64,000 nt of DNA, taken from positions 6,076,001 to 6,140,000 of the forward strand of contig OU612075.1 of assembly GCA_914767715.1 (NCBI GenBank). Reading direction: 5' to 3'. Made by a program: the position numbers and the translations under genes. Under the pieces are notes generated by a model. The model did not search any database. It was given only the letters and a program-made list of their open reading frames with translations, and was not told where the DNA came from. Shown one piece after another: positions 3,389 to 57,860 of this stretch. Position 1 is the first letter of the stretch. Every line of letters begins with the position of its first letter. The stretch is from Membranipora membranacea. Taxonomy: Eukaryota; Bryozoa; Gymnolaemata; Cheilostomatida; Membraniporidae.

Positions 3389-6300
3389 CTATGGCTCTTC
3401 AGGATCTGATGCCAATTGTTCATGTATCCTGATGCTGTTGTCTATGAAACGCAGTCTATGGCACATGAAGGTGTGATGTTGATTGATTAGAGCATCGAAG
3501 TAGCAAGCATTTTTTGTTTTGCTCTCTGACGGTTTAGTTTTACAAAATCCAACCGCTGGTGGGATTCCTGCAAATATTCATCGAAAGTATCAATCAACGA
3601 TTCATAAACTAAGCTCTTTTGATATTCACAGTGGAAATTACATGAACTTATATACAATGATAATAGTCACAAACAAAGACTTGATTTAACATCTAAATAT
3701 CCACTTCCGATGTCAAATGACAAAACTGTTGCAAATGATTATCATTCATAGCTTTTGGACAGGTTTAACTTATGCAAAAAAAATCATAGGTCCTGTTGAG
3801 ACTGTGCTTTTGCCCAATAAAATCTTTAATCACATTGAAAATATGGTTTTGAGCTGCAGACTCTTGAATCTACCTCGTTTTCTGTTCTGAATCCTAATAC
3901 GAGCAAGGTTCAAGTTTTTCTGTCTCTGTTGCCAGCATTTCTCTTCAAGCGCTTGCAGAGTTGAGCTTATTTCTTTTTCAAGCAAATGATTGTACTCCTC
4001 CTGCAGGAAACATGCTAGCAAGTTATAGATTCATGATTTGATATATTCATTTATCATTATATTAGTTTGGAAATATGATTTTCGGCGAATCAACTCATCA
4101 ACTCATCAATTCATTTACAGTCTTGTTTTGTCTTATGTAGGGGGAGGGTAGTGGTATGAGACCGTATTCTCCAGAGAACAGGTGATTGACACCCATAGCG
4201 CTCAAAGACCCCGGGACAATTTTGACTATTACTGATAGAACACATCCTTGATGTTAGAAGGATGAGTAGTTCCATCGGTTGGTTTTGTGATTACATGATG
4301 TGTCTGAGTCTGAGAAGTTTGTGATTTGTGAGAGTTGTGGGTTGAAGTATGATTTGAGTTTTGTGGTTTGTGGGTAGGGAGAAGCCAGGGTAAATCCCTG
4401 GAGACGAGTGCGGGAATCGAACCCGAGACCTCTCGCTTGATAGCAAAGGATGTGATCATTTGCGCTATCAAAGCTTCTTCACAGCATAGCAGCAGTGGTG
4501 CTGCCGCTCATCAATAAAATCAACCCAAATAGTTCAAGGTTATCGGAGTGGTTTGGGGGTTTACCCAAACTTTATTTAATCTTTACCCAAACTGACGGTA
4601 CTTCCCCAAACCAAAAACTGCAAACCCAGAAAAGTGATCTGAGGCCAATAACTGTTTTTCTGCGGTGAGAACCACCATACTAACCCTGCTATCTGTCGCC
4701 CTGTATATCTCCACCTCTCTGTTCTTAATGTAGTTTACAAGATCAGACCTACGGGAGGTGCTCAGTACTTCTGTTGACTGGAAGACTGGCTGTAATCTGA
4801 ATAAAATATATAAAATAAAAAGTTTCAGCACTAAAAAGAATGACTTGTTTAATGTACTTCTCCCATCAGGTTTGATATTGGAATGAGGTCTCCTTTTTTC
4901 GAGATATATATTGAAAGAAGACTAACTGTCTGAGAAGTTATAGGCTAATATATCAAAGGATAAGATATTGTATGAGGCAACCGATCAATAAGTAGGATGT
5001 ATATTGTTATTGTAATCTGTAATTATTGGCACAAAATTAATCACCAAGAAAAATATCTCAAATCACAAGTTTCAGCACTAAAATAAATGACTCAAAACGA
5101 TTCAATTTTCTTCTCTCTTCATGTTTGATTTGGTAATCCCCGTTGGAACTGTAACCGTTGGAATGAGGTCTCCTTTCTTCGCAATATATATAGATAGATA
5201 TTTTTGTGATTTACTATGATGACGATAAACATTTTATTGCATTTTTTATGTACTGTCAGATCTAATTTATACATTTAGTCGTATATTGATTGACAAATTA
5301 AAGTATTCGCACAAAAAAAAATCTGTCTGTGAAATTAGAGGCCAATATATCATAATTATAGGATCAGATATTGTATACATCTGGTCGAAAATTGTGGTTT
5401 TCAAGTTTTTAAATTCATCTAAAATAAGAGAAGTTGTCATCTGTTTTCCCAGGAGGAGACAACTTTTTGTGTCATCATTCCATTGATGTGCATGTCTGTT
5501 CATAATGACTTAGAGTATGGATTTTCAATACTAATAACACTACCTCCAAACCAGCAGGGACAGGTTTCATGTTAAAAGAAGAAAAAAATACAGGTGAAGC
5601 AAGAATCAACTTAGAGTAATACTCTAGGAAGTCAGTTTTTCCTATACCTTCTGATGTTTGGGGGCACTTCACTTTTGTTCCTAAATTGGGTGGTATCAGA
5701 ATACTTTACCCAACTGAGCCACCTTCTAGTCCTGGGTTGTATCAGGGTACTTACCTAGCCCCTCACTCCGCTATGATTACAGGCCAGGGTCAGTAGATGA
5801 AACTCATCAGTCTTCCCTCTTTTTAATCTGATGATCGCAGTTACTTACAATTTGCAAACTTCTTGGCTCCTCATATCCAAAGTTACATATGTATGCCATT
5901 CTTTAGCTGGCACATTACCACTAATAGTAGTTGCAGTCACATCATCCAGCGTTAGGTCTGCATATACATGAATAATAGTTATAAACATGTAATAGCTTGT
6001 ATATGTATTTCTTCTGCCAAAAAAATACTACCAGTATTTTCAAAATATAGACAATATTTTTATAAGATAATAACCTGTCGGGTGTGCTCCTATTTCCCTT
6101 GAGAGAAAATTACAGCAAATACAGGCCTTACAGTCTATTTTGTATTTTTTGTTGTGATGATCTGGGATCAAACAACACTTAACACTATTACCAAGTTTTT
6201 GTTCAGACAGACTTGCTAATAGTGTCAAGTAGATGTTGTGAGTCCCTACCATCATCACCAAATATACTCACTAGCCTGTAGGTTAGCCTGTTTCTGCCTT

Positions 6301-7231
6301 TGCTCCCTTCTCTCTTTGATCTCCTGAGAGATTCTGTGAATCTTTTGTGTGATGAGCTCTTCATACTCATCCTGATACAAAAACAAACCAGGCCATCTGG
6401 GATCAGCGTAGGCAAGCAGAGGCACTACCAGATTACCCACGGCAACACACTCTCTTTCTAGGTTAGATTAATTTTCTATACTTAGGTCGGCAAATAGAAA
6501 TGACATTTGCAAAGAACAGAGCAAGGCTAGTTAGAGCCATCAAGAAACTTTATCATAATACAATGTTTAGTGATGCTGAAAGGTCTGCATGCTGATTGTG
6601 CGAGTGTTCAGTTGGCTCCTGGATATCTAAGTCTCTCGGATTCGATTTTGATGCGATCAGAAAGTATTGTCACATTTGATCCGGGTGTCAGTAAAACAAT
6701 AATGTAGCATAGATACCATGCTGTGGGCAGTCTTGTACATTTCTATCTCCACTTTGTTTGCAAAATGAGTGAGACTAGCCATACGACGGTCCCTGTGGCC
6801 CTCTGTTGATAGGAACATGGCTTGTACTCTACAACAGAAGAGGATTATTTTAAACAATAAATATTTCAAAAAGAAAATCAAGTTTGAAATGAAGTTAAAG
6901 ATATATATATATATATACACAGTCGATAAAAGTACAAGCACTTATATCAGACCGAGCAATAAAGACAGACTGACAGACAGACACACAGACACACAGACAC
7001 ACAGACAGTGTTAACCTGACTACAGCATGAGCATTTGGTGAGGTTTATTGGATTTACTCCAAGGTAGCAAGTCAACGTTAGCTCCGTGACAATGACAATA
7101 CTGAGGTTGAGAGGTACTTACAATTTGCTAACTTGCTCACGTCTCATATCTGAAGTCATATCGGCGTGCCATTCTTTCGCTGGTTGATCGACTATCTCGA
7201 TAGGTGCAGCTGTTATTGCGTTATCAGCCAT
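3389..7231 (-). CDS. Tandem KIX-domain protein, CBP-derived (two KIX domains, no HAT)
   Basis: Seven exons join in frame: 7122-7231, 6717-6828, 6272-6371, 5849-5957, 4685-4796, 3874-4000 and 3389-3567, giving 282 residues. KIX 1 spans about residues 15-100 and KIX 2 about 122-212. Each is built from three exons with the same boundaries and phases (1, 2, 0, 1) as the KIX exons of the CBP gene downstream of which it lies. Shared words include AKEWH, VQAMF / LQPVF, EMYKTAHSM / EIYRATDSR and DEYEEL / EEYNHLL. The start is fixed by an in-frame TGA immediately before the ATG at 7229-7231. KIX binds transactivation domains of factors such as CREB, Myb and MLL; here no acetyltransferase or bromodomain is attached. 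The last exon (acceptor TTTGCAG, 60 codons including stop) is less certain: the sixth exon could instead read through to a stop at 3830-3832, followed at once by ATTAAA. The role as adaptor or decoy is inference. Confidence 0.82.
4229..4480 (-). repeat. tRNA-derived SINE-like element
   Basis: On the minus strand there is a tRNA-like head with an A-box-like TAGCGCAAATGATCA and a good B-box (GGTTCGATTCC, near 4415), followed by about 150 bases of unrelated, A/C-rich body. The anticodon arm does not fold into a five-pair stem with a seven-base loop, so I do not call a functional tRNA. It lies in the intron between the fifth and sixth exons of the tandem-KIX gene. Confidence 0.5.
6898..7012. repeat. 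Microsatellites (TA)n and (ACACAG)n
   Basis: A run of TA dinucleotides near 6900-6917 is followed by CAGACACA-type repeats at about 6975-7012. They lie in the first intron of the tandem-KIX gene. Confidence 0.8.
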
Positions 7232-11003: not shown

Positions 11004-12462
11004 TTAAGATTTGGGTTGTGGTTGTTTGCTGCCGCTGGTATCTCCTTCTGAAGATGGTGTTGAAGAGGTCATGGCAGCCATACGACGTCGGAGCATTGCT
11101 GCCTGTTTCTTTCGATTATTTGCCTGTTGCTGCTTTAATTTCTGTTTGATATTCAGACAGAATGGCACAGGGCACTTGCCTTCGTTACAGTTCTTAGCAT
11201 GGAAGCAACACAAAGTAACGAGATGTTTGCATATAGCACAACCTCCGAGATTTTTTTTCTACAAAACACATACAGCTTTGAATTATGAGTAAGAGCTCGA
11301 TGGCATATAAAGGCTGGTTCAAGAGCCTTCTAGCTCACCCATAAGCTAGTCTACTCAACATCGATTGGTAACTTGTTGAAGGCATGTTCTAGTTTTCACA
11401 CCGGCGTTGACAAAGACTCGATTGAGCTTACCCTGCAACTTTTGGTGTGATGAACAACCTTCTTCATCTTTTGACAGCTGGGTTGTTGACAGTTGGGATC
11501 ACTACACTGACAGGCATGTTTAAGTGACTGGATACATCTCTGTATGCTGATATGGCGTGACTCAGAAGCGGTCGTCGCTGCAGAGTCTTCATTGCGATTC
11601 TCGTCTGACGTACAAGGCATATCGCTTGATTTCTCTTCTTTTTCCTCCTAAAAAAGAAGTCAATGTAGTTAAAAAGTAGCAAAGTACACTTGGAGACGAT
11701 TAAGAAAGTCAAATTCTAATTACTTGCTCTTTTGTCACCAATAATTGTGCTAGTTATGCTGTTGTCTTTAGCAAAGATTATAAATTGAGTATAGGGCAAA
11801 TAAATACATCGTCATTCCATACCACAATGTTGTGACAGCAAGAGGCAAAAGTGTAGCCTGGGCTGTCTCGACCGGTGGGTGGCATCTTAGACAATATTTG
11901 TGTCAATCACCTGTTCCCTAGAGAGTATGGTCTCATTACCACATCCGTATCAGACAAGGATATCAATGGTCGATCCAATCAACACGTTGTGTGCCAGACG
12001 GAGCAAAGATAAGTAGAAATTTACAAGTCTCGCATATAGAGCTTATCTGAGCCAAATCCAGATAGTCACTCCCTAGTCGAAGTGCTCAGACAACAGCAAT
12101 GCAAGTAAGCTGCATTACAGTCTCAAACACTCAATTTCAGTGTTGAGTGCTTCATAAGCCACGTGATCTAGCCCAAGTTTCCGGGGGGGGGGGGGGAGGG
12201 GATGGAATGGAATTCTCTCACCCACCCACCCCCCCCCCCTGGAAACTTGGGCTAGATCACGTGGCCTTATGGAGTGTTTGGTAATGTAATGCCATTAGAC
12301 ATCTCATTGCAGCTGTCTGAGCACTTAGACTAGGTACTTCCTTGTCTCCCTTACCTTGTCAGTTTCCATATTAACATGTGTTCCTGTGTCCTTGTCTGTA
12401 GTCATATTGACATCATTTGCAGCTTTAGGATCTGCCATATCAGCTGATGAAGCCAAAGCCAT
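11004..12462 (-). CDS. TAZ2-only protein, CBP-derived (192 aa)
   Basis: Three exons, 12,355-12,462, 11,432-11,647 and 11,004-11,258, all phase 0, encode 192 residues. The ATG at 12,460-12,462 has an in-frame TAA 18 bases upstream. The first 60 or so residues are polar and acidic and unrelated to CBP (for example ETDKEEKEEKSSD). From about residue 62 the protein is a TAZ2 zinc domain: [15 protein letters not shown], then [19 protein letters not shown], then [20 protein letters not shown] and [13 protein letters not shown]. Every Cys and His of the CBP TAZ2 zinc pattern is present. The exon junctions sit exactly where they do in the CBP gene at 17,668-18,891. The frame ends at a TAA where CBP has a CAA glutamine codon, and the CBP donor that follows is missing. 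TAZ2 binds activation domains such as that of p53. Without HAT, ZZ or NCBD, a competitor or decoy role is plausible but inferred. Confidence 0.85.
11880..11950. repeat. Short dispersed repeat (CACCTGTTCYCTAGAGAG type)
   Basis: The same segment, with a nearby TCTCATNACCAC, occurs at 20,150-20,215 and inverted at 4139-4205. Three diverged copies show it is a dispersed repeat rather than a regulatory site. Confidence 0.5.
12072..12334. repeat. Foldback element with G-run and C-run at its centre
   Basis: The outer ends CTAGTCGAAGTGCTCAGACA and TGTCTGAGCACTTAGACTAG are inverted copies. Further in, CCACGTGATCTAGCCCAAGT pairs with ACTTGGGCTAGATCACGTGG. The centre has about 12 G (12,182-12,195) and about 11 C (12,228-12,239). 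Total length is about 260 bases. It lies in the first intron of the TAZ2-only gene, its right end only about 20 bases from the donor. Confidence 0.8.
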
Positions 12463-15341: not shown

Positions 15342-17390
15342 TCACAAACTATCGACAAACTTGCTCAGTTCTTCTTGAGGTGTCAAAGCGCTGCTGTCCG
15401 GCTGAGGAGGCCCCTGTGGGCCGCTGCCGACAAAGCCCTGATCGCCACCGAAATCAGGCGGGGCGTTTTGTTGTTGCGGAGGCATGTTAGTGTTCATTTG
15501 TGGGGCGTAATTTCCCTGGCCAGGCGTCCCTGGCTGCATCATCCCCACCATGTTATGGGGGTTAGGGTCCATTCCAGGTTGCATGATAGCAGGCGATGCT
15601 GTTGCATGCGGACGAGGAGACTGGCCCGGTTGCGGAGACCTGGTGTGAGACGGTAACGGGGCGGGAGATCGTACTTGCTGCAATAGCTGATGATTGTGAT
15701 GCATTTGAGCGCCGGGTGGGACTTGTCCTCTAATGCGCACCCCACCAGGCTGGTGTCCCATAGGCGGGCCTCCAGGCTGTCCGGGCATCGAACCATCAGG
15801 AGCTGGGGACCCCTGATAAGGTACCCGCGGTCCTCCGTACTGAGGAGGCATTCCGTGTTGCATCATGCTTTGCATCTGATAGCCTTGGTTCTGCGGAGGC
15901 TGCTGGGGGTACATATTAGGCTGCATTTGATTAGGACCCATAGAGTGAGGTCCCGGAGGTCTACGGCCCATAGGCCAGCTCATACCGCCGGCAGCACCGC
16001 GCTGCATATGGTTCTGATTTTTCCGCTTGATGAAAGCATCCATTAGTTGAGGGTTAGATTTCAGTAATTCCATTATCTCTTGATGTTGCTGAGCGCTATT
16101 GGGTGACTTGAGAGCTATTTCCAGCTGTCGCATGAGGTTGGCGTTAGCAGATGGTGGGCCCATGCCTGGCTGCCCAGGTCCACGTGGCATCATACCACCA
16201 GCTCCCATACCTGGATGATGACCTGAGAATAATAATAGCCCACTATTATATTTGTCCATGTTATGATACATACATATATATAGTATATATAATAATATAT
16301 ATTTTAATAAAATTAATAAATAATAATAAATATATTTGTCCACATATTATAAATGTGGAGATGGATGTGCTTGAACAGACAGACACAGCTTATTAAATTT
16401 TTTACTCTCTTGCTACCAATTGACACCTTTACACGCATATCAATACTTCATTTTCGAACTGATTGTATTTTTATTTTTAATATAATAATAAATAACCATT
16501 TTATTACTCTTACCCATAGGTCTACTTTGGTTGTACATCGGTGGGGGTGGTTGAGGGTTGACCCACTGATCCTGTTGCGGGTGTCCGCCCATACTGTTGG
16601 GCATCATCATTGGTGGCTGCTGTCCGCCGTGACCAGGAGGCATACCCTGGTCTCTCATGCCACCCATAGGCTGTTGACCATATCCACCAGGTTGTCCCAT
16701 CTAGGAAAAAAGAAATATTAAAACTTAATTTTGTTACTTTGCTGGCTGTAATTATGTAGCTTTATTCCTTTGGAATTTTATCTCCAAATAGTGGCTACCC
16801 ACTATAATTTACAACACAAGACTTACAGCGCTTCATTAACCATATCTGCGCGTTGGGCATGTTAGTTTTAAACCATTAACACACAAATACTTTTATATTC
16901 ATGGTATCGCACTAGCAGGAGTAAAAAGAAATATCACGTTGATAATTTCACCAATATTTATAGTTAGAAACTGTATCAAATTGACATTCTGTGTAGAATC
17001 TCACCTTCACATTCACACAATACTACTTCACAGCTTTACACAGATCATGGTTGTGTTGGTCCATTCTTACCTGATTAGGAGTTGACTGCATAGACATATT
17101 CTGATTAGGAGCTTGATGCATCATACCAGCCGAGACCGCCGCAGGGTTCATACCTCTCTGCTGAGCCATAGCTGCGGGCTTGCCTCCCATACCACCAGGT
17201 CCTACAGGCTGTCCGGGGTGCTGCCCGGGCATCGGCTTGCCTCCGACTGAAGGGGGTCCCTGAGTGGCTTTGAGAGCCTGGTTGAGTGCGTGGTGTGCGG
17301 CGTGGACGGCTGCTGGTGGAGCGGCTGGCTGCATGGGTTTACCTCCGCCATGATTACCGCTTGCGGGGTACGGACTAGACACTGGCTGGC
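15342..17390 (-). other. CREBBP: CBP C-terminal region with NCBD
   Basis: Exons 17071-17390, 16514-16700 and 15342-16222 encode Gly/Pro/Met/Gln-rich sequence. The nuclear coactivator binding domain is at about residues 1900-1945 ([20 protein letters not shown], then [20 protein letters not shown]), which folds with the SRC/NCOA coactivators. Confidence 0.9.
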
Positions 17391-20300
17391 CTGAAACATC
17401 CAGTACACAAAACGTTATAATCATGTGTGGAAATACCATGCACCCTTTTTTTTGCAACACCTGTCTGTGTTAGTGATAAAAATACATATATCAATCACCC
17501 AAGTTTATCTTGGCACTAGACAATTCTGGCTACCAGTTTGTCGCTTTTGTTCTGGTATTGTCTAATAACCTCAGTTGTTATTTGAAAGAACCGCTTTATT
17601 CCAAAAACAGTAGTGCAAATGTGATATGGGAAAACAAGATGAAATTTGTGAAGCATTCAACACTTACCGAGTGAGGATTGAGAGTTGGAATGTGGTAGTT
17701 TGCTGCCGCTGGTATTTCCTGAGGGTGGTGTAGAGCCCATAGCTCCCTGACCTCCGGGTCCGCCTATCATGGCGGCCATACGACGTCGGAGCATTGCTGC
17801 CTGCTTCTTTCGATTGTTTGCTTGTTGCTGTTTGAATTTCTGTTTGATATTCAGACAGAATGGCACTGGGCACTTGCCTTCGTTACAGTTCTTAGCATGG
17901 AAGCAACACAAAGTAACGAGCTGTTTGCATATAGCACAACCTCCCAGAGATTTTTTCTACAAAACAAAGACAGAGTTTAAAAGTTATTATGGGTAAAAAA
18001 TGGATGGTGAATCAAATTTAGGAAGGATAATTAGTTAATCATCACCTAAATATGAAAGAATTTGCTTTGCCGTAAAAAGACAACTTAGTGTTGTTAGTGA
18101 TAGCATATAATCATGCCTAATATTATGTGCAATGGACCTTCCATGCTGTCAATTCCGGTCAGATCTATTGCACATTACAAGGAAATGAATCACCTAAAAA
18201 TAACACACCTCCAAGACAACATCCCCATCACATATTTTCATAACAAACTGTTTACTAGAGCTGCAAAAATGTATCACTCAGTTGATGTTCTGAACAAATT
18301 TTTTTCATTGCTCTACAGTTATCTAGGGAGAGATGGAACAGGAAAACATCACTGACTGCTTATGGTGTTAGCAAGGACTAAAATATCTTTTTGACATTTG
18401 TCTGGTTGACATTCGTGGCCACAAAATTCTTGTGCCAAGGTAACATGTACAGATGAACTGCATCCTGGTTGGAAAAAATAGTCGTTCAGTAAAGCGCCAA
18501 AGAAATGATGATTTTAAATAGTCTCATAATCGCTCCCTGTCAATTATGCGCAAAAGTTATTCTTTCCATATTCAATTTCTTCCCAGTTTCATGTTGCTAG
18601 TATAGAGCTGGAGTTAGCTAGGGGAAAATCAAAACCACTCACCCTGCAACTTTTCGTGTGGTGAACAACCTTCTTCATCTTTTGACAGCTGGATTGTCGA
18701 CAGTTGGCGTCGCGACACTGACAGGCATGTACAAGTGACTGTATACATCTCTGTATGCTGATTTTGCGAGATTCGGCCGGTGAGCACATTGCCGCTGAAT
18801 CCTGATTGCCGTCCCCGTCCAACAAGCCGAGCTTCTCCATCGGATGCTGATGCTTCTCCTTTTGGTAACACTGAACACAAAGGTCAAAGTCCTGAAATAC
18901 AAGAGCAAAAGCATTGTTGAAAAATACGCAAGGAAATGGTGGATCAAGTTTGAAGGAAGTAGTGATTCAATTATTCCAACATGTTGTTCCATTGGCAAAA
19001 TTATTACCATCTAACTTTCTAAATTTAGGAATACAACTGCGTACAATGGGGCATACAGTTATGAATGAGCGTATAGTATGCTCAAAGCTAACTAGGTATA
19101 AAATCAAGACATAGATGGTCCATGCCTTTCAAATTATTCAACAATAGAAATCTGTTGTACTAGACACTGATTGCTTGATAGTATGCTAGGAAAATTAAAA
19201 AAAAGTTTCATCACCTGACAGTCACAAACACAACCCTCAAGATCAAGATACCATTCTGCCTGTACCGGCACTGGTATAGAATCAGGCAGAGTCGGAGCTG
19301 ACATCATGATCGGTGCAACGCTAGCAGTAGGTCTCGGTATAGGATACAGCACAGACCATATACCAGAATCCATGTTCCTCGTTGTTGTATAATTTAAAAT
19401 TTAATCACCAAATACCAAAGAAACACAACCTAGCAGTTCACTATCCAAATGACGAATGACATACATCACTTGTTTTTCAGGATTGGCTACAGGGAATCTG
19501 TCAACACTGTTGTCTTGTACGGGATGCATGTGTTTCCCCATAACAATTGCGAGGTAAAAACTTGTGCCACCGATATTAATACAGGCAACAGGAAGCTACC
19601 TTTCAATCATACATAGTAGCGTATGATCAAGCACGTTGCAAATCATGTCAATCAATATAGTTAAAAATAAATCACATTTTATTGGCTACCTGCATGAGGA
19701 ACAATCTGAACCAATCAAAAGTGATTTTTCATCAATGCAACCAATCAAGTGATTTTTCATCAATGCAGAGACTAGGTGGCTGCCCTAGATTATTTAGTAT
19801 GCAGAAAACCAACCAATCCCACAGTTCACTGAACCTAAATATCAATGTTTAATCCAGACCAGGTACTGAAGGGAAAGTGTCCCAGTACAATTATAACGCA
19901 GTAGTAGGCAACAAAGCAAATTAACTGTAGAACTATTGCAACAGAACCAAGACGACAACAAATCTAAATTAGCTAGTTAACGAGGCTTCTAGTAAAAAGA
20001 ATATTGTTAAAGCTTGGCTTTCCTATTCATAACTTAGTTAGAGACTTTCCTACGGTCTAGAGCTTGGAGCAAGCCATTCAATTACATTGGTAGCTTCTAG
20101 TTCTTAATTAAAGCTTGTCTGCATTTGTCGTTAGGGTTAATACCAATAGCGCCACTATGGGTGCCAATCATCTGTTCTCTGGAGAGAACAATCTCATACC
20201 ACAACCCTCCTTCCACACAGGTCAAGACCAATAGTGTTATCTCACTTTATCAATATACAGTCTGTACCCCCCCCCCTCCCCCCAAACGTAAGACAAGACA

Positions 20301-23300
20301 ATGATGTTACCTCACTATATCAATATAAAGTCCATCAACCAAGCTATCAACTCACCTCGCAAACTGTACAGTGCCACCTCGTTTCCACCTGCCCCTTGCA
20401 CATATTACATGTGTAGACGAACGCGTCCCTGCTAGAGTTGTGTATCTCGTGCAGCATGGCGATGGTACTGAACTTCGTACGGCGCAGAGTCGAGAACTCC
20501 CAGTGTTTCTCCCTGGCCATGGTGAGGAAGGCGTCGCGGCCGTCCATGAGATCGCATGATATAAGTGGGTCTGGGTCTGAGACGACGTCCTGTCTGATGA
20601 GTGCGTGAGTTTGGAGCTTTATCACAAAGAACACATCGCGATACTTCTCCATGGATGATAGAACCTAAATAAGCAAAATGATACATATGGTCAGTATCCA
20701 GAGAGCAAATTTGAAGATCTGAAAGCAGTGGATTATGATGAGATATTTAACGTATAAAATAAAAGCATCAATATGGTTATGGATGAGATTAACCCCAAAT
20801 AATTGATTGGTGACTTGGCATTTTTGACAAAGCGGGTCCTGTCACATTGAGTGCAGACAGTTAAGCACAACTCCCAGGTACACATAAAACCCTATTTATC
20901 AATATAAAACTGATCAATTCAAAATGTCACATTGCCCTTCCATTCTATTCATGGAAACAGCTGTTTTTAAGCCAAACTTCAGCTTAGCATGATTGACGCT
21001 TCTTAATCCCCTTTCACCATTGCCCTCCATTCTTATTACATGATATCCTCAAAGCCTTCCCAAAGAATGTTATAGTCAGGCGGTTACTTATGATAAAGTT
21101 GTGTCAGATTAGCATCGTAAAGAAATACAATGCACCACTTGGCATGAATTATCGATGGTGGAAAGAGCGCCGCCCATAAGGGAAGGTAACTCTCATTCTC
21201 TGCATTATGATGTCACAGTGAACAGGAAGTGTTTGTTTCTTGTATTGCATAAGTAACTGCCTGACTATAACATGCATTGGTCTTTGGGTAGTTTGCAATG
21301 TGAGAAGGGAAGACTGATTGAGCTGGGCCTCCAACGCACACTGACATCGAGATCACATTATTATCATGTGTATCTCTGATCGTTAGTGTCAATTTAGTAG
21401 CAGTACCTAACATGTACACACCCCAAATTAATAAAATTGGACAAGGGTCACCAGATTTCTTGTGATGGTACTTCTACTAAATGAATAAATTCACTCTCTA
21501 TCGATCAGGGATATTCATCCAATAGTATATCATGTGATCAGTGTGTCTCCAGCATGCACCAGCTTCCAAAGCGGGACAAAGCAGAGATAGGTGAGGATGT
21601 TTCCAGAGTGAGTCTATATCTGACAATGTGAGCCCTCTTACCTTTGTAGTGAGATCAGAACCGTTTTGCTGAGCAGGTTTCTTTGAGCTCTTTCTCGTGC
21701 TGGCCTTCTTGTTGCCTTTCTTCTTGGTGGCCTTCTTGCCTTGTTTCTTTCCGCTGGGGTCCTGAGAAGTGTTGTCCTCCGTATCGGCTCCCATCATATC
21801 AGAGTCAGCATCCTGAGAGGCCGCGGCAGCGTCCTGAGCAGCCGCTGCTTCCTCCTCTGCTCTCTTACGCTTCTCTTCTTCCTCCAATTCCTAATTAAAT
21901 TTTCAAATATACATATATAAACTTTCAAAGAATGTTGGGTCCTTTTCGCCGGCACCTTTTGTTGGAGGAAGCATAAACAGAAAAAAGCTTGGTAGAAAGA
22001 TATGTAAATGTACTCAGAAAAGTTACTTACAGACAAACCCTCCTAGTAACCTCTCTGACAGGTTGGAGTCAAAATACAAAATTTAGAGCACCAGAGTGAG
22101 AGTGATGTACAAAATTCCAGCCTCATCAACTTAATGTAGAAATGCCAGGTACCTGACCAAAAAACCAAATAATTTCATTCCTCCCTGGAATTAAATCAAT
22201 TGTCTACTTTGGTAAGAGATAGTTGATTTTGATGGCACAATGGTACACTATACACTCAATAAATTGACCCAAACTGACAGACAGTATCACCAAGGTGTAG
22301 TACCATTCAGCACAGTCGTTGCACCTTACAAACCTGGGGGTACAACTCCAAAGTAGCTACTCAAATCACCAAATATAATGAGGAATTAGTTGCTGTTATC
22401 TTATTTTTCTGGTTTTACACAAATTAATAACATAACTGCCACACATGGCTGTATAATGAGCTACCTGTCTCATAAACTTCATTTGGCTTTAGTTTTGATC
22501 ACCATTTCAGTAAGAGTTTGGGTAACTTCGTCATAACCAGATAGAGATGAATTACTTACCCGGATGCTTTCTTCCAGAACATTAGGCCAGAAGTCACCTT
22601 CAAAGTAGGGAACCTGGGTCGCGCATGATAATCCTTTCTCTACCGCATCTTTGTATATATCCTTATACTCCACGACAACCCCTTCTATTATGGCCTACAA
22701 AAAATGGGAAGTCTCAACATTAACTACCAACAGTAGCACTATATATATTATATATCCCTACACTTTTCAAATGTTGGCATGTACACAAAACTGTCACTTT
22801 TCCTTCCTAATACAATTATAAAATGGTGATAAATGAGGAAGAAGTGAACACTTTTGGGCGACAAAAATAAAATTATCACTTTGCCTTCCTAATGCAATTA
22901 TAAAGTGTCGATGAATCAGAAAAGCTGACACTTATGACCAATTCAAGTTCCCTGAGATTAGTGAGTCTGACATCGATCTTTTACACTACTCACTTTGTCT
23001 AACATCTTCTTGTACCAGTCTTGTAATCTCTTTGGTTTCGGTATCTTTTGTTCAACAGGGTGGCAGTGGAAAATATAGTCGTCGCCTTCCGAGGGAGGAC
23101 AAGCCCATATGTGCGCCCAGTTGAAGCCTAACGCTTTACAATAGTCCAAATAGCCTATCAGTATTTCGTGGTAGACGGCAGTCTTATATTCTTTGGGCTG
23201 GAAGAAATGCACAGAGTCTAGGTATGATATGTACACTCTGCCCCTGTTTGGTTGGCATACTTTATCGTCATACTCCTGAACGTGCATTCCGAAGAAGCAG

Positions 23301-26300
23301 ACTTCTTGTCCGTCTATTTCCTCAAAGGCAAACATAGCCTTAGTTCTATATGGATATGTGGCTGGCAGAGCGGGAAACCGCTCCTTCATGGCCATTTTCA
23401 TTTCAGTGTCTTTGTCACCTGAGGCTAACACCCTGATTATAACCTCTCCAGCACCAATACTCTTACGCGTCAAGAAGTTGTTCACCCTCGACTCGAGATA
23501 AGCACTGAGCTTACATGTGGGTAATCCTGAAAGGAGAAGACAATCATTAAACATCAGGGACTGGGAACATTTAGGTTTGTCTACTTTATTCAATCCCAAA
23601 CCATTAAACATATAATCCTTATCGCTAGTGACAGAGGAACGGAGACATGTCGTTTTTCCTTTGACACCAAGCTCAGCTCAGCAGTCTTCACAAGGAACTG
23701 ACTTCAGTTATAAATAGAGATGGCAAAGTTTCTGAAACTCCAAAACGAGAGCAAAGATCAAAGACGCCTAACATAGTGGTTTAAACATGGGCTCAAATAT
23801 CCTAATATCATGGAAATGTTGTAGTGCCACACGCACACTCTGTCAATGACCCAGGCCGATGACCATCTTTATTTACTGAAAGGATCTTTTACCATCAATT
23901 CATCATTACAAGTTTATCAGATTATCAGGATTGATGGCTTGACCAGGGCTGACCAGGGCTGACCAGGGCGTGACCAGGCTGGTCTCTCCCTACATAGAGC
24001 CAGCGAGCGATACATAGAACCAGCCTGTTAATGAGATCGGTGTCCTGAGAAAACCCTACGGTGTACTCGTGGACACGCAACAGATTATAGAACAACCCTA
24101 GCAAGAAGCAGTGAAGCATGGCCACTGCGCTCACCAAGCCGCTCTCTTTGTTCATGTTTTAGCCTAAGCTAGTTGTGATTTTAACTACTAACTAATCTCA
24201 TCGTGGTTATTATAAAGTGGCATTATTTATGTTAGAATCATCCGCTCATTGGCTGGAACGGTGTAATATATTAACTTATCCTGGCAAGTATCTCAATCAA
24301 GAGTTTGCGCAATGTCAAATCAGCATATTGCTGCTATGATTTCTCTATAAAAGTGTGAGTGCCACGAGTAAATCAGAAACATAGAGTTAATATACTAGGT
24401 CTATGGGACTTAATACAGTTAGTATATTATGTCTATAAGCAGAGATGACTATTTTTCATCTCTGCTTATCCAAATGATACCAGAAGGGACACATTGAAAA
24501 GCTTAGGATTGCCACAAAGTCTCATTCCTCACTAACATTGAGCCCAGATAGACGCAGTACAACTTCTTTGTCTAATTAAACCTAATTGAGAGCTAAAGCT
24601 TGTATTCTTGACTAACAGGACAATTCCAAATCATAACTTTTGATTGTGGCTGGTCAGTTCATGGCTATTATCACCAAACAAAGACACTGGTTTTGTGGCT
24701 GTCAATGTTTACTGTTTACCTATCGGACAAGCGAATTCACAGAGGCTAGAGAGCCCAGGAGATAGGTCAGCTGAGTGACCAACGGGGTGTTGTTCAAACT
24801 TGGCGCCCTTAATGTACATAAAAGTGATGAGTGGCGAGGTGATTTATTATATTTCTATACTTACGTTTAGCTGTAAATCGATTCTCCTTTCGTTTAGCAC
24901 CTTTGGTTTTGAGACACGATTCACATGTGAAGCCCTGAGGCCAGATTGCGTCCATGTGAGACACGCAGATATTATGTACTTTTCGACCGCAGTCCGTACA
25001 GATTGAGAACTTCTCCAATTCTAAGTGATCATTCTGTAACCAAAATAAGATTAGAAGATGATCAAAATGGAGGAACGGCAGTGATATGACCATTATTATC
25101 AGGTGTAAACATAGATTTAAGATACTATATATTATTTCTTGGGTGAAAATTATCCAATAAGGAACACATTATAGTTAATTGTCACACCTACCTACGATAG
25201 GGTGTGAAATAGAGGGCTGAGGCATTTACTAGATTCATTACTGTAATTTATATTAGCATAAGGTGTGTAAAATCAGTTAAGAACTGGATGCCCCCTGGAT
25301 CCTAACTCTGTGTTGGTCCATGCTGGACTGTGCTGATCGAATACCTGGTTATAATCTTCTATATATAACTAACATGGCACGTTCACACACTCCAACACAA
25401 TCCGATACAGTGATATGGTGTTTTATGTACTTTTTCTTTTCACAGAAACAGGTAACACTGATATATATATATATTCAATAATTAGGGGAAAATATCCAAC
25501 CTGACTAGGCATATGGCTATGTATGTATGGTTTCTCAAACGCATTTCTCATATTTGATAGGTACACTCATAAACACTACAGCTGACCACTCTAGTCAAGC
25601 AAAGTGCTTCCAATTACTGACGCATAACGAGCTATGTACTAATGGAATTTCTCCACAAATAGCCATACATTGAATTTTACCACCAATCCATGAATGATGA
25701 TGTTCTGCGGCAGACTAAAAGGCTTTTCCATATACAAACCTTAGTTTTGATGAACTGTGATTTTGGAAGTGTAATGGGATTTCCTGTGATTTCGTCAGCT
25801 AACTCTACTAACTCTGTCTGAATCTCTTCAAAGCATTTCTCGCAGTAGACATACCTACAATCATCATACATATTTAACATGATATTCTAGAGGAGCAAAT
25901 ATAAGCGGGAATTTAGTTCAGCTAGTATTGTGGTGACTTAATGTTAGCTAGCTCTAAGTTTGGGCTTCCTGAAATGGGATTCTGTATAAAGTAAAGATGG
26001 TGAGCAAATGTCAGCTAGCCTCAAATTAAGCTTTTTCAATCCTGTGGGAAATGACAAACATTCCCTTCTGCGTATATTTTAATTCTCTAGGGTAAGAACG
26101 GTTTTGCATCATCATATTCACGTTCACAACCATAAGACTGAGGATGTTAGCAGAGACTGAACCAAAATTCGAAATTCCAGCATTGTTGCAGAATTAATTA
26201 ACCTCTCTTTTGGCTGGGGAGCAGTAAGTGGATCTTTGGGAAATCCAACATTGTCTAACTATTGGGTTGTCCACCCTTTACCCAAACACTCTCTCTCAGT

Positions 26301-29300
26301 TGCCTACCCCTGAAGATAAGTTAAAATAGATAATCCACTGCTTACTCTGCATTTTGTGTATGAGCCATGAGTAAGGCAAACTACACTAAGAGACATACCT
26401 GTTTTCATAGCTGTAGTATACTTGATCTCTATTGATGGTACAGAGTTGTTTGCCATAACAGCAGAGACTCTGCGGGCTGAACACATACTTTCTACCGCAG
26501 CAGAAACCCAGTTTCTGCATAACAGCATCGATATCACCCTCAAATACCTCCGCCAACTATAAAATAAGAACAATACTCCATGCTGAAGTGATTGAAGCAA
26601 CTCACAAGCTCAGAGACACTTGCATTTTTGATCAACTGTTTCAGTGTCTATGTCTTGGGAATTGTAAAACGATTCAAAATCGGTGATATGTTCGTACAAG
26701 ACCAGTATGACAGGAGCAATATGGGACGCCACAAGTTGAATATCAGAAAAAACTTTTACAGAGTTAGTCGGAACATGTCTGGACTGAATAAAATGTTTGT
26801 TTCACCATTGAAGGAAACCCAGAGTTACACCATCATGTTAAAGATTGCATCTGGTAATCATAATTTGTCGAAGGGAATTCCCAGTTTTGGGTTTCCTAAT
26901 GGAATTCCCAGAGAACTACGGGTTATGGGATTTCCAGATTTGTAGGCCTGAAAACCAAACAGTATAAGTCCACATTAAATTACACATATCATCAGCAATA
27001 CTAATAGTTAAAAGGGTCATTCAAACAGAAGTTATGACAACAAGCGAACATACCCGTGAACACCACTTGTACACGCGAGATGTTTTACGATTGTACGCCC
27101 AGGCGTTCTCAAACATGAGCCAAATATCGTCACAATACTGCCACGGATCTGTGTATGAGCCATCGTCCAGCTTGTTCTTTATAGTTTGCAGATCTATTGG
27201 GTCCTTGATAATGTCATAATAATCCTGAAAATAAAAAGATCTGCCATGTTAAAGTCAGCTATCACAATAACTTTCATACTAAAATCAGCTATCACAAAAG
27301 CTGCCATATAAAGTCGGCTATCACAAAGCTGCCATTAAAAGCTAGCTATCACAAAAGCTGTTTCGTAAAAGTCAGCTATCACAAAAATATACAAATGACC
27401 TGGGAGCAAATCAGCAGCAGTAGTACACTGAACGCGAACAGGGACAAGAAGCCTTGGTATGGTGATGTTAACTGGATGAAGGTGTGATAATCTATATTTG
27501 TGGCACCCCTAGCGTCACAAAAGACCTATCAATCGTGCCTCTTCAACATCAGCAGCAATACATATAACACGAACAAGGAATTAGAATCATAAGTTTCGTG
27601 ATGTGAACTGAGTAAAGGTGTGATAATCTATATTAGTGCTAGCTTAAGGCTGTGCTTCTACTTCTTCACGTACCGGTATGCCTAGCGATATGGCATCTAC
27701 AGGTTGTCTGAAGGGGAGGGATTCTTCGAGTATAAGTAATTTCTCCAGGGTAGGTGAGAAGGCTTGCTGTAGTTCGTCAGCCTTCCATGTCTTCTTCGGG
27801 ACTTTAGGCTGATTGCTCGATGGCGTGGCCGGCTTCAGGTCTTTCACGTCCGTTTTGCTTTCTGATTTGGGAGTTTGTGGTGCTGAGTTTGGTGCTTTAG
27901 GTTCATCCTACAATTGTTCAACATAACATATTTGTAACAGGAAGTGATGCTGTGTTTACGTGCTATCATATGACCTTAAAGGGGAAGTCACAATTATTTC
28001 CTTCCCTTCCTTATGGAGAATTCTTAGGTCTACAAATATACTTTATATACATAGTTGTGATTTCCAAAATTTGTAGCCCAGACAATGACCAGTATTTATA
28101 ATGTTTGGCCAAGCTATGGTATATAGTTGACCACAAGGATTTTCAATCAAATGTTGATGGGTGTGTGTCAACAGTTGATCAGAACAGAAACACAATCAGC
28201 ATTATTTAAAATTTACTGTTGACCGCTGACCGAGGAGTCATCTGAAATACCAATGGCTTTAGAGTCATAAGCCCACTGTACCCATGGTGATATAATATTA
28301 TTTCATGGTAATATATATGATAACATGATATATAAAAATGATATATTATATGATTTTATGGTGACATATGTGAGTATTTCATGGTAATATAGATATTATC
28401 ATTTCATGGAGATATATATTATATCAATTACAATCACAAAAAAGTTTTAGCCACACTGATGACGTGATATACTATTGCATGTGTATATCTGATCGATAAA
28501 GAGTGAACTAATTCACTTGGAATGAGTACCATCACAAGAAATTTGGTGTACCATAAGGTTTTTTTTACTTATTAGGGGCGGTACATGTTAGGTACTCAAA
28601 CTAAATTGACTCTTATGAACAGAGATAAAATGATAATGTGTAGTTTCGTTGTCAGTGTGAGTTTTAGCTGAATATATACCTTGACACTGTCAGCTTTGAA
28701 GCCATCTTTCTTCATCACATCTCCATTCTCCGATATGTCCATGCTATCACGCGGTTCTGATTTAATCTCTGGTTTGATTTCCTACAACACACAAAGTTCA
28801 AAGGTATGTCACCAAACTTGTAGACTCAAGTCTGCATAGAATCTCGATCAGCCAGTCGAAATTTGGATGCAAGAAGTCTTAGTGCTGTTTTCCTCCTTTC
28901 TTAAGTATACAGCACCGTTTGAAATTGATTTTTATCAACAATCAAGACATATAGCCGGCAAAGTTCCAAAATATTGTTGAGTTGCAAGTTTCAGAGTTGA
29001 CTCCGAGTGCCTAGATGTGTTTTACATTTTGTAGCCCTCTAGTACTGCTCCAGCTTTTAGTATAAACTATAGAATTATATCAGGCATTTAAAAAAAGGAA
29101 TAGCTAAATTCTGTTCTGCATTTTGTGCGCTGGTTAATTCACTAATCTGGGGCAACTGATTACGTTCACCAAAGAATTGAAAAAACTCACAGCCAAATGT
29201 AGAAAGGTATTTCTTTTTATTAGCGAAACTGTCACTACTGTGCATAAAAACTGGTTGCACAGAGATTTATATATTGTTCTCCTGTTACAAATTCATATTG

Positions 29301-32300
29301 TCCAACAAAAACAAATTTAAATTAGGCATCAGCAATCTAATAAAGTTTTTTTTTGCATCTATGAAAATATTGCGCTGTCACTCACATGCTGCATTTGTTG
29401 TTTCCTTATGGCCTCTTGTAGTTCGTTCTTGCTCTCCATTAGCGCTGTAGACACAGGTACACCTGAGGCAGTGCCGGACATAGGGGGGCTCATCAGAGAC
29501 GCCCCTACTGAGTGAGGGCCTACTGAGGGTGGACCACCGTAGCTAGGTACAGAGCCTGGACCTCCGCTGACTGACGGCACAGAGCTGGGCGGAACGCTGC
29601 CTGGACCTGAAAACAACAAATCAAACCATTGATATGAATTCATGGATTGGTGTTAAAAATACACAGTTTGACAATGTTGAGTTAAGTTCCACCTGTATAT
29701 AACTTTGCGTCAGTAATGGATCTAGCTCAAAATCTGGCAGCTTTCATGTTGAGCATTCATTGACATCCCAGTAACAACTATCTATAACTCAAGCTGCTTT
29801 ATATGAATATAAAATATGTCAGCGAAACAAACCTCGGATTCATGCGCAAAATGTATGAACTGTGGTGAAAAAGGTAAATTTGATCGAAGACGTGGCATAA
29901 CTTATGATTCAACAAGCTTTAGTTGTTTTAACGTAGACTGAAAACTTTTACATATTAAGAACTAACAAAACCCGAATACTAGTCTATTTCTAATCTGCAG
30001 TGCTTCACTGTTTCTGATTTGTTAGAGGAGCAATGAATGTATCTCATGAAAAAAGTTTGGCTCAACAAGTGATAGTAACATACATAACCCTCACTTTTTG
30101 TACTAGTGGCTTTTAATCACTATAATTTATTCCAATTTGTGGTGATTATCATTTTTAACAAGGACAGGAAAAGCTGAAAGGCTAAAACATCTGGATCTTG
30201 GCGTGATCCAGGCATCTATTCAATCAGTTCGATAAGAAATTACAGACAGGAAATAAAACACAAAAATGACTGACTGCTTGATCAGCGAGTATGGGCAATG
30301 ACTGATATGACTTTATAAACTTTGATATGGGCTATCATAGCCTGTCTTGACAAGCTTTGTTCGGTGGTGATCTTTTCTTGAAAGTGCCATAATTCATATA
30401 AGCACAATAGTGATAACCCTAGCCTGTCTTGACTAGGGTTATCCTTACACTGTGTTTATATGAAATATGGCACTTTCAGTCAAAAGATCACCACTTCTGA
30501 AGAGATGACAAATTTTTTGCACAATAAATAATCCTGTGACATGACCATCTCTCATTGGTTGATGAAAAGACAGTGCCTAATATCATTATATCAGCTGAGA
30601 GCTATTACAGTATACTGTCATTTACCAGTAGCTTTCTCTTGGTTATTATAACAAAGCACAAGCTATGTTACAGAACTTTAGTATGATTCTTTGTCCAAGA
30701 AAGCAATTTGGAATTCTTTGATGGGGTGAGCTCTTTGTTTAGAACATAAGGATTATTTGCAGAAACTTGGCTTCAGCGCTCGTTCAAAAAGCCTTTGTTG
30801 AGAACAATTTTTTGGCTATTGCCACTCATAACCAGTAAAAGTTTGTGCACTTGAAAATTTATCCATGCTCTAAAGTACTTTCTCTCTCCTTATTGTTTTC
30901 ACTATTTGAGGACATTTGCAAATATCCACAAAGTACCAGTTATAGTTAGGCTATAGTTTGTGGTGGACTTATCACCAAATCTTACTAGCGAAGGTGGGAG
31001 CTTGTTAGGGGATGAGTTAATGTTAGCTAGTCAGAGACTTCACTCATCAAGACTGTTCGAAAAGTTTGAACTCTAACTCATGTGAATTCTTTACCCTTCT
31101 ATGGTGTATCCATAGACTTGATCATTATTATCTCGTCAACAGGGGTACATCCCCATAAACCCACAACACTGGTGTACTGCAGAGTAAGACCACTGTAGGA
31201 GAAAATTAAAACAAGTAAGCTGACCAAACTGCAACTCACCATTATAATTTGACAGGTTTGAAGCGGGTCCTAGCATATTATTTTGATTGTTTCCGGGCGT
31301 CTGGCTACCGGCAGCAGAATTAGGTCCAGACGGTACAGAATTTGGACCCGCTGACGAGTTCGGCACACCGACTCCTCCCTGTGGTGGGGGTGGCTGCTGG
31401 CCCTGATTTGCTGACTGCTGTGAGATTTGCTGCCGTCTTGTGCGCCGTTTTTCTTCTAGCTCTTTTTGGATTTTGTATATTTTTTCGGCTAGCATGTGAT
31501 AATACTCTTCCTGAAAATTGCCAAGCAGAGATAATATCAGTCACTGGTGACTACACCAAACCCAATGAATATCATAATACTGTCATTTAAAAAAAATTAA
31601 GTTTAAAAAATAGTACTTAATAATCATGCAATTAGTTGACCATGAATATGTCACAAACGTGAGTGATATATACAGTTTTATAGCATCCATCATCATCAAA
31701 AAATGTTCTCCATGATGTGCAAAAAAAAAATACAACCTAAATAAAATCACAGTTCTCATGTTGATTCCAGGAACAGAGAGCCACAATAATTGTTTGGTGG
31801 TTTGCCCAATAATTGTATCTACATGTGTTTTAGTTCTTACAGCTATGAAAGGAATTTGTATTTACCCTGCTGTTGGCTGTCTTGTACATTTCCATCTCTA
31901 CTTTTCTTGCATAATGAATGAGATTGGTCATACGAGGATCACTTAGAACCTCTGGCTGTGGTGACGGAAAGATGGCTTGTACTCTACAAACAGAACAGAT
32001 ATAATGTATAAATATACGAACAGTTTTCTCATTCCAAGCAAAAGAGCAACACCAGAAATAAAACTTGTCTGCACTCTACAACAGAACAGGATTGTTTTTA
32101 TCACTGATATATTTTCAATGGATATAATATGAAGATACAAACAGTTGTCTCATTCTAAGCAAAAGATAAACACCAGAAACAAAATGCATGCTCTGGCACA
32201 AGTACTCAAAAACATAGAAATTTGTTACATTTACTATAAGTAATAAATTGCACTCAGTTATTTTGTGACATTATGGCCCAAAATGGGTCCACCCAAAATA

Positions 32301-57446: not shown

Positions 57447-57860
57447 GGTAACATTATAACATTAGAGCAGACTTGATCAAATTTGATCCAGTTTGCAAGC
57501 GTTACAGGTGCCCCCTCTACTTAACTGACACACCTTCGGCCTTGGCATGTCAGTTGATGGGGGGCACCTCCAACGCTGGAAAAATGGATCAAACTTGAGC
57601 TAGGGCAGACGTTTACTTTGACAGTAGTTTATGTGGAGTTGCATAGATAGGTAACATTATAACATTAAGGGCAGACTTGATCAAATTTGATCCAGTTTGC
57701 AAGCGTTACAGGTGCCCCCTCTACTTAACTGACACACCTTCGGCCTTAGCATGTCAGTTGATGGGGGGTACCTCCAACGCTAAAAAATGGATCAAACTTG
57801 ATTTAGGACCAACGGTTACTTCAAACAGTGATTTCTCTTGAGTTGCATAGTTATCGTTAA
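57447..57860. repeat. Tandem duplication of a foldback element
   Basis: Two nearly identical units about 203 bases long start GGTAACATTATAACATTA (57,447 and 57,650). Each contains TTGATCAAATTTGATCCAGT and an inverted ATGGATCAAACTTGA, with CAGGTGCCCCCTCTACTTAA and TGACACACCTTCGGCCTT between. Few differences separate the units, so the duplication is recent. It ends about 20 bases from the PHF21A-like stop codon. Confidence 0.85.

What the first reader, a model, noticed from the sequence alone, without database searches (positions are those of the whole stretch)
3389..7231. A stand-alone protein with two tandem KIX domains, copied from CBP
The sequence shows six exons that match the three KIX exons of CBP twice over, with an ATG fixed by an upstream in-frame stop. 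From established knowledge, animal KIX domains are found in CBP/p300 and in MED15, as single copies in large proteins. A small protein that is essentially KIX-KIX is not something I know. It could bind activators, or bridge two of them, without delivering acetyltransferase activity.
Basis: partly seen in the sequence, partly recalled or inferred. Interest (0 to 1): 0.88.

Follow-up and report, generated by a model that had tools for sequence, protein, structure and literature searches.

The report
Twin-KIX mini-gene copied from CBP
Next to an animal's complete-looking CBP gene lies a small separate gene that appears to encode just two copies of CBP's KIX docking domain, both altered on the face that normally grips CREB and Myb, which may let it act as an enzyme-free decoy or adaptor for other gene activators.

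Summary
Six minus-strand exons (7231-3874) repeat, with the same internal phases, the three KIX exons of the CBP gene upstream in the same window. Both predicted domains pass Pfam's KIX cut-off; the ATG directly follows an in-frame stop. The seventh exon is unsupported. DNA similarity, phases and shared rare residues say that the domains came from this animal's own CBP, probably as one KIX later doubled. Frames are intact while introns barely align; neutrality of both copies together is rejected, of KIX1 alone not. Both keep fold-defining W591, R600 and Y640 but have changed L599, L603, Y650, A654, Y658 and K662, invariant in 91 of 91 CBP/p300 KIX compared and, as far as I recall the structure, on the CREB/c-Myb face. 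Best reading: a HAT-less adaptor or competitor working through the MLL face. It is not alone: 19 of 120 short KIX proteins examined carry two or more KIX, and C. elegans cbp-2/cbp-3 are HAT-less CBP fragments near cbp-1. None of the 19 has the six face residues changed in every domain. A TAZ2 copy lies between it and CBP. Expression is untested. New variant of a known kind.

The parts
7122..7231 (-). Exon 1 of the KIX-KIX gene: start codon, N-terminal tail and first part of KIX1 (..PAKEWH..SKL)
   Evidence: In-frame TGA just before the ATG, donor GTAAGT; matches CBP exon 32541-32430, E 2e-6
6717..6828 (-). Exon 2: middle of KIX1
   Evidence: 76% DNA identity to the CBP KIX middle exon over 136 nt, E 6.4e-22; same phases
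6272..6371 (-). Exon 3: last helix of KIX1
   Evidence: Matches CBP ORF 31540-31139, E 6e-5; donor GTGAGT
5849..5957 (-). Exon 4: linker and first part of KIX2
   Evidence: Matches CBP (E 1.5e-6) and exon 1 (E 9e-7); 76% DNA identity to exon 1 region over 72 nt
4685..4796 (-). Exon 5: middle of KIX2
   Evidence: Matches CBP middle exon, E 7e-8
3874..4000 (-). Exon 6: last helix of KIX2
   Evidence: Open in frame and inside the KIX2 Pfam match of 34.1 bits; no match of its own at 1e-4; donor GTAGAT is weak
3389..3567 (-). Putative exon 7: 59-residue C-terminal tail (uncertain)
   Evidence: Frame fits but no Pfam match and no polyadenylation signal downstream to 2800
3830..3873 (-). Alternative end: read-through of exon 6 giving 14 more residues, a stop, and an ATTAAA starting at 3830
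31240..32541 (-). The source: three KIX exons of the CBP gene (32541-32430, 31983-31866, 31510 to about 31240)
15342..36364 (-). Complete-looking CBP gene (approximate ends; TAZ1, KIX, bromodomain, RING, PHD, HAT, ZZ, TAZ2, NCBD, C-terminus LSKFVDSL)
   Evidence: Pfam on pieces: HAT_KAT11 213 bits, RING 84.3, bromodomain 59.9, PHD_P300 53.8, Creb_binding 45.8; zf-TAZ 34.3 on one TAZ2 exon, ZZ 19.1 below its cut-off; TAZ1 read by eye from ORFs
11432..11647 (-). TAZ2 copy, first exon (neighbouring CBP fragment, separate ORF)
   Evidence: zf-TAZ 48.4 bits when joined with the second exon; 88% DNA identity to CBP over 137 nt
11004..11258 (-). TAZ2 copy, second exon, ending in a stop where CBP has a Gln codon; CBP's splice donor here is absent
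   Evidence: 83% DNA identity over 307 nt; whole TAZ2: 97 of 106 residues identical, 17 of 17 Cys/His kept

Best explanation
A real, lineage-specific gene made of KIX exons duplicated out of the neighbouring CBP gene. One KIX was copied, diverged, and was then doubled in tandem. The product is essentially KIX-KIX with no HAT, bromodomain or zinc fingers. Inferred mechanism: both domains still fold as three-helix KIX bundles but no longer bind CREB-KID or c-Myb type ligands at the alpha1/alpha3 groove. They keep much of the opposite, MLL-type groove. The protein would therefore dock up to two MLL-site activation domains without bringing acetyltransferase, either competing with CBP for them or tethering two of them. 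Shown: anatomy, CBP origin, change of the face residues, and joint rejection of neutrality. Inferred: expression, folding, ligand choice, competition.
For: Two Pfam-grade KIX domains in one open frame. Same exon phases as CBP KIX; DNA similarity of exon 2 to CBP's KIX exon. Rare residues shared with the window's CBP: H630 (KIX1) in 0 of 232 other KIX; S621 (KIX2) in 0 of 91 CBP/p300 and 2 of 141 short-protein domains; V619 (KIX2) in 0 of 91 and 4 of 141; E638 (both) in 0 of 91 and 10 of 141. M599, T615, Q662 and a two-residue gap are shared by the two copies and rare elsewhere, hence copy first, double later. Introns barely align while exons stay open and similar. Both copies neutral: lnL -836.96 against -828.80 free. 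KIX1-KIX2 pN 0.354 against pS 0.737. W591, R600, Y640, Y649 kept in both. L599, L603, Y650, A654, Y658, K662 are 91/91 elsewhere and changed in both. On my KID-face list 7 of 9 conserved positions changed in both copies against 7 of 33 others, Fisher one-sided 0.003; MLL list 2 of 9 against 12 of 33. Y658 and K662 hold the CREB phosphoserine and Y650 lines its groove (PMC3936767 section 5).
Against: No transcript, no orthologue: the direct homologue search returned no protein at E<=0.001 among 473 candidates. KIX1 alone is compatible with no constraint (lnL -829.25 against -828.80). KIX2 carries V635R and I660T at positions invariant in 91 of 91. Overall identity does not tie KIX1 to this CBP more than to others: it scores 39/82 with it and with three other KIX. 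E638, a rare residue shared by all three, recurs in 10 domains of other tandem-KIX proteins. Taken singly, the face asymmetry is weak (KIX1 p 0.047, KIX2 p 0.15; permutation 0.08 and 0.10); the copies share ancestry; the face lists are mostly recalled and were written after I had seen the copies' sequence. MLL-face residues are not kept significantly better than others in the Fisher test (p 0.35). Exons 4-6 score like non-coding DNA in codon usage.
Confidence: 0.5

Rival explanations
1. A decaying duplicate: the exons were copied out of CBP, have drifted, and are not (or no longer) a functional gene.
For: No expression evidence; no relative found; KIX1 omega 0.446 not distinguishable from 1, a cost of 0.45 log units; only 14 and 11 of 28 fully invariant KIX residues kept in KIX1 and KIX2; exons 4-6 score like non-coding DNA in codon usage; weak last donor and unsupported exon 7.
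Against: No stop or frameshift in either copy; neutral simulations starting from the CBP KIX stayed stop-free in 68 of 2000 and 51 of 2000 runs; splice borders of exons 1-6 intact; joint neutrality rejected; introns lost similarity while exons did not.
Confidence: 0.25
2. The same protein, but the altered alpha1/alpha3 face has gained a new polar specificity, so the gene is a neofunctionalised docking protein rather than a competitor.
For: Four of the six changed face residues become charged or polar in both copies (L603Q/E, Y650E/N, A654T/E, Y658H/S) while neutrality of the pair is rejected.
Against: Of the six, the two copies share the same new residue only at M599 and Q662, less than expected of a single new specificity.
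Confidence: 0.13
3. The KIX exons are part of a larger HAT-less CBP-like gene that also contains the TAZ2 copy at 11.65-11.0 kb.
For: Same strand, 3.8 kb apart, both similar to CBP, and both between CBP and the window edge. C. elegans cbp-2 combines a zinc finger with KIX (PMC10320766, passages).
Against: The TAZ2 copy ends in its own stop with the CBP donor absent, and KIX exon 1 has an in-frame stop right before its ATG. The TAZ2 copy looks younger (dS 0.24 against 0.91 for KIX1 and saturated for KIX2).
Confidence: 0.1

Closest known systems
C. elegans cbp-2 and cbp-3 (PMC10320766 and PMC10743222, passages read)
   Same: Partial CBP duplicates near the full-length gene, lacking HAT; previously called pseudogenes, yet knock-down changes promoter or reporter activity.
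   Different: cbp-2 is described as first zinc finger plus one KIX and cbp-3 as first zinc finger (the second paper says KIX only); in the passages seen neither is described as two KIX in tandem with a changed CREB/Myb face.
Short tandem-KIX proteins in databases: Diadema setosum P0131, Cotesia P0134/P0162, Meloidogyne incognita P0124 (KIX-KIX-TAZ), Molossus nigricans P0126 and unnamed sequences
   Same: Two or three CBP-type KIX domains in a protein of 232-452 residues.
   Different: 12 of the 19 have a domain that keeps both Y650 and Y658; none has all six listed KID-face residues changed in every domain as here. H630, shared by KIX1 and this CBP, is in none of their 40 domains, which suggests a separate origin.
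KIX domain of CBP/p300 (PF02172)
   Same: Sequence, exon phases (against this window's CBP), R600-Y640 cation-pi pair and W591.
   Different: Single copy in a large acetyltransferase: of 120 CBP hits 111 had a KIX and none had two. The six KID-face residues are intact in 91 of 91.
Plant tandem-KIX proteins (PMC5668377: up to six in Brassica oleracea; PMC3936767: rice; passages read)
   Same: KIX in tandem.
   Different: Not compared here; average metazoan-plant KIX identity is given as 28%, and the present copies match CBP of their own window.

Membership tests
KIX domain (Pfam PF02172) | Profile match above the curated cut-off | tested here: met
   56.2 and 34.1 bits against 27
KIX domain (Pfam PF02172) | Fold-stabilising R600-Y640 pair | tested here: met
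   Present in both copies; role from PMC3936767 section 5
KIX domain (Pfam PF02172) | Three-helix bundle fold | not tested
KIX domain of CBP type, CREB/c-Myb binding | Y650, Y658, K662 and L603 of the groove | tested here: not met
   E/N, H/S, Q/Q and Q/E in KIX1/KIX2
CBP/p300 (KAT3) coactivator | HAT, bromodomain, TAZ and ZZ domains in the same protein | tested here: not met
   Only KIX-type families pass their cut-offs in the 282-residue model
HAT-less local CBP paralogues (C. elegans cbp-2/cbp-3 kind) | Partial CBP duplicate near the parent gene, without HAT | tested here: met
   About 8 kb downstream of CBP's end, same strand; no HAT
HAT-less local CBP paralogues (C. elegans cbp-2/cbp-3 kind) | Expressed, with a regulatory effect | not testable with these tools
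   No RNA data available here
MED15 KIX (PF16987) | Best match to the MED15 KIX model (that PF16987 is the MED15 type is recalled) | tested here: not met
   KIX1 31.3 bits on PF16987 (above its 25.6 cut-off) but 56.2 on PF02172; KIX2 16.3, below cut-off

The most novel reading that the evidence does not exclude
CBP in this animal has shed a small set of enzyme-free docking modules at its own locus, a KIX-KIX protein stripped of the CREB/Myb face and a TAZ2-only protein. They act as built-in competitors that set how much of the acetyltransferase each class of activator can recruit, the KIX-KIX form being selective for MLL-face ligands.
Probability: 0.25. Interest if true: 0.75.

Novelty: new variant of a known kind. 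Interest (0 to 1): 0.52.

Why it matters
[quoted passage not shown] A natural protein that carries only its KIX module, twice, and with one of the two ligand faces changed, would be a ready-made separation-of-function tool: it would show what activators lose when the MLL face is occupied without acetyltransferase, and whether animals repeatedly evolve such decoys. That tandem-KIX proteins and HAT-less CBP fragments turn up in several animals makes this a testable pattern and not a curiosity of one genome.

Tried and rejected
Codon-usage scoring trained on 1812 CBP codons gave slightly positive in-frame scores for exons 1-2, -0.18 per codon for exon 3 and -0.31 to -0.34 for exons 4-6, against a non-coding median of -0.35; the well-conserved first TAZ2 exon of the copy also scored about zero, so I treat it as weak evidence against coding, not decisive. 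A tree of 49 of the 94 KIX rows placed both copies on very long branches (8.88 and 6.4) next to the window's CBP with low support (84/46); I rely on shared rare residues, phases and DNA similarity instead. Rfam found nothing in the window. Searches for reports on CBP/KIX in sponges or other early animals, on CBP microproteins and on p300-like KIX genes of Cotesia wasps showed nothing on point; of these I saw listings, and passages of PMC5560861 on premetazoan CBP. Searches for tandem or two KIX domains gave general KIX papers and plant papers only as far as the point goes, plus one unrelated use of 'KIX-only'. PMC9067669 (passages) mentioned only I660 and L664 of the residues I looked for. I could not name the animal: the listed CBP hits are 45-68% identical over the matched part. 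Separate copying of KIX1 and KIX2 from CBP was set aside: four columns favour the copies being sisters, none and one the alternatives. The other frame of exon 7 was rejected by reading the sequence: I saw no donor of the needed phase in exon 6.
Full report
What is there. On the minus strand, six exons at 7231-7122, 6828-6717, 6371-6272, 5957-5849, 4796-4685 and 4000-3874 have AG/GT borders and join into one open frame whose ATG is directly preceded by an in-frame TGA. Pfam finds two KIX domains: 56.2 bits for the first half and 34.1 for the second, cut-off 27. Against the PDB six distinct sequences match, all CBP/p300 KIX (one a ferritin fusion), best E 1.8e-16, and in each the matched stretch is KIX1. 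The seventh exon is open in the right frame but has no family match, and no AATAAA or ATTAAA lies downstream of its stop as far as 2800. Reading on through exon 6 gives 14 residues, a stop, and an ATTAAA at 3830. I treat the two KIX domains as firm and the C-terminus as open.

The source. The window holds a complete-looking CBP gene on the same strand, from about 36.36 to 15.34 kb, with HAT, bromodomain, RING, PHD and NCBD supported by Pfam pieces, TAZ2 by one exon above the cut-off and ZZ by a match below its cut-off, and TAZ1 read by eye. Its KIX lies in three exons, 32541-32430, 31983-31866 and 31510 to about 31240, cut at the same places in the same phases as both KIX copies. In a comparison of all ORFs of 22 residues or more with each other (E up to 1e-4), exons 1-5 matched CBP's KIX exons and exon 6 did not reach the threshold; besides the KIX and TAZ2 copies I saw no other domain-bearing CBP exon recur, only short repeats. 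At DNA level exon 2 is 76% identical over 136 nt.

Where the copies came from. I compared them with 90 distinct KIX domains from 111 of 120 CBP/p300 hits (9 had none) plus human, 91 in all, and later with 141 KIX domains of the 120 short KIX proteins. H630 is shared by KIX1 and the window's CBP and found in 0 of 91 and 0 of 141. S621 and V619 are shared by KIX2 and this CBP: 0 of 91 each, and 2 and 4 of 141. E638 is in this CBP and both copies: 0 of 91, but 10 of 141, all ten in other tandem-KIX proteins, so it is less telling than it first looked. S614 is in all three, 1 of 91 and 11 of 141. By overall identity KIX2 is closest to this CBP (36/82) but KIX1 is equally close to three other KIX (39/82). 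With the phases, the DNA similarity and the position beside CBP, I conclude that the copies left this lineage's own CBP. M599 (0 of 91, 3 of 141), T615 (0, 1), Q662 (0, 1) and a gap at 617-618 are shared by the two copies and not by the window's CBP, which points to one copying followed by a tandem doubling. The tree is too weak to add to this.

Is it maintained? Neither copy has a stop or frameshift after 83 and 98 nucleotide differences in 258; neutral simulations stayed stop-free in 68 and 51 of 2000 runs. Pairwise values: CBP-KIX1 dS 0.91, dN 0.33; CBP-KIX2 pS 0.769 (saturated), pN 0.275; KIX1-KIX2 pS 0.737, pN 0.354. A three-branch codon model on 86 codons gives omega 0.446 for KIX1 and 0.184 for KIX2. 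Forcing both to 1 costs 8.16 log units; KIX2 alone 4.36; KIX1 alone only 0.45. So constraint is shown for the pair and for KIX2, and not for KIX1 by itself. Introns and flanks of the copies align to CBP's or to each other's only in short stretches. Codon usage does not support exons 3-6.

What changed. The fold-defining W591, the R600-Y640 cation-pi pair and Y649 are kept in both copies. Of 28 positions identical in all 91 comparators, the window's CBP keeps 28, KIX1 14 and KIX2 11; ten are changed in both copies: L599, L603, P613, Y650, A654, E655, Y658, K659, Q661 and K662. Y658 and K662 hold the phosphoserine of CREB and Y650 lines the groove (PMC3936767, section 5 read); L603, L607, I611, L628, L653, I657 and I660 form a hydrophobic network (section 9 read). 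Using face lists written before the test, largely from memory, but after I had seen the copies' sequence, 7 of 9 conserved KID-face positions are changed in both copies against 7 of 33 others (Fisher one-sided 0.003), and 2 of 9 MLL-face positions against 12 of 33 (p 0.35 for better kept). Copy by copy the KID excess is weak, p 0.047 and 0.15. A permutation weighted by BLOSUM62, with slightly shorter lists, gave 0.08 and 0.10 for KID damage and 0.09 and 0.02 for MLL preservation. The direction is consistent and the strength moderate.

How it most likely works. From the anatomy I infer a HAT-less protein with two KIX bundles that no longer take CREB-KID or c-Myb but may still take MLL-site activation domains, competing with CBP for them or tethering two at once. 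Expression, folding, binding and competition are all inferred. The main rival is a slowly decaying duplicate.

Is it known? A direct search of 5.8 billion proteins with the predicted protein gave nothing at E<=0.001 among 473 candidates. A wider profile (my protein plus artificial doubles of CBP KIX) gave 839 proteins, of which the best 120 were listed and examined: 19 contain two or more KIX domains (in P0121, P0148 and P0227 one is truncated, in P0130 one lacks a piece), 101 contain one. Of the 40 KIX domains in those 19, 28 keep Y650 and 22 keep Y658; 12 of the 19 proteins have a domain with both; none has all six KID-face residues changed in every domain as this one has. C. elegans cbp-2 and cbp-3, HAT-less partial duplicates within 160 kb of cbp-1, affect promoter activity when knocked down (PMC10320766, passages; PMC10743222, passages). 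Literature searches for tandem or two KIX domains found plant examples and general papers only. The finding is therefore a new variant of a thinly described kind.

A companion. Between CBP and the KIX-KIX gene lies a TAZ2 copy (11647-11432 and 11258-11004): 97 of 106 residues identical to CBP's TAZ2, 17 of 17 Cys/His kept, dS 0.24, dN 0.05, pN/pS bootstrap range 0.08-0.58; stop-free neutral drift would be common at this distance (601 of 2000). It ends in a stop where CBP has Gln, without CBP's splice donor, so it looks like a separate TAZ2-only protein; I did not find its 5' end.

Limits. No RNA evidence was available and no structure prediction was run.

Noticed in passing
window 11004-11647, minus strand: A TAZ2-only copy of CBP in two exons, strongly conserved in protein (97 of 106) and with all 17 Cys/His, but with an intron and flanks that hardly align to CBP's despite dS of only 0.24; exon-restricted similarity may mean gene conversion.
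   Followed up: partly
P0140, P0141, P0144, P0158, P0170, P0207, P0214: Several birds have annotated 'p300-like' proteins of 149-153 residues with a KIX match; the four sequences I looked at (P0140, P0141, P0158, P0214) are essentially one KIX domain plus a short tail, apparently a stand-alone KIX gene.
   Followed up: no
P0124: A Meloidogyne incognita protein of 397 residues reads KIX-KIX followed by a TAZ domain, an order unlike ordinary CBP.
   Followed up: no
P0133 and P0147: Unnamed proteins of 374 and 380 residues with three diverged KIX domains each.
   Followed up: no
window 60342-60848, minus strand: A PHD finger exon (PHD-1st_NSD 35.8 bits, PHD 33.9 bits) of what is probably another gene upstream of CBP.
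   Followed up: no
window 44412-50123, minus strand: Several ORFs that read as a long coiled-coil rod (weak Myosin_tail_1, 17.4 bits, below cut-off, on peptides joined by me), possibly a paramyosin-like or intermediate-filament-like gene.
   Followed up: no
window 57452-57838: A local duplication: two ORFs 95% identical over 41 residues.
   Followed up: no
window 32070-32114 and 6823-6866: CBP's KIX intron 1 holds a second stretch resembling the acceptor and start of the middle KIX exon (82% identity to the KIX1 acceptor region over 45 nt), perhaps a remnant of a partial exon duplication.
   Followed up: no
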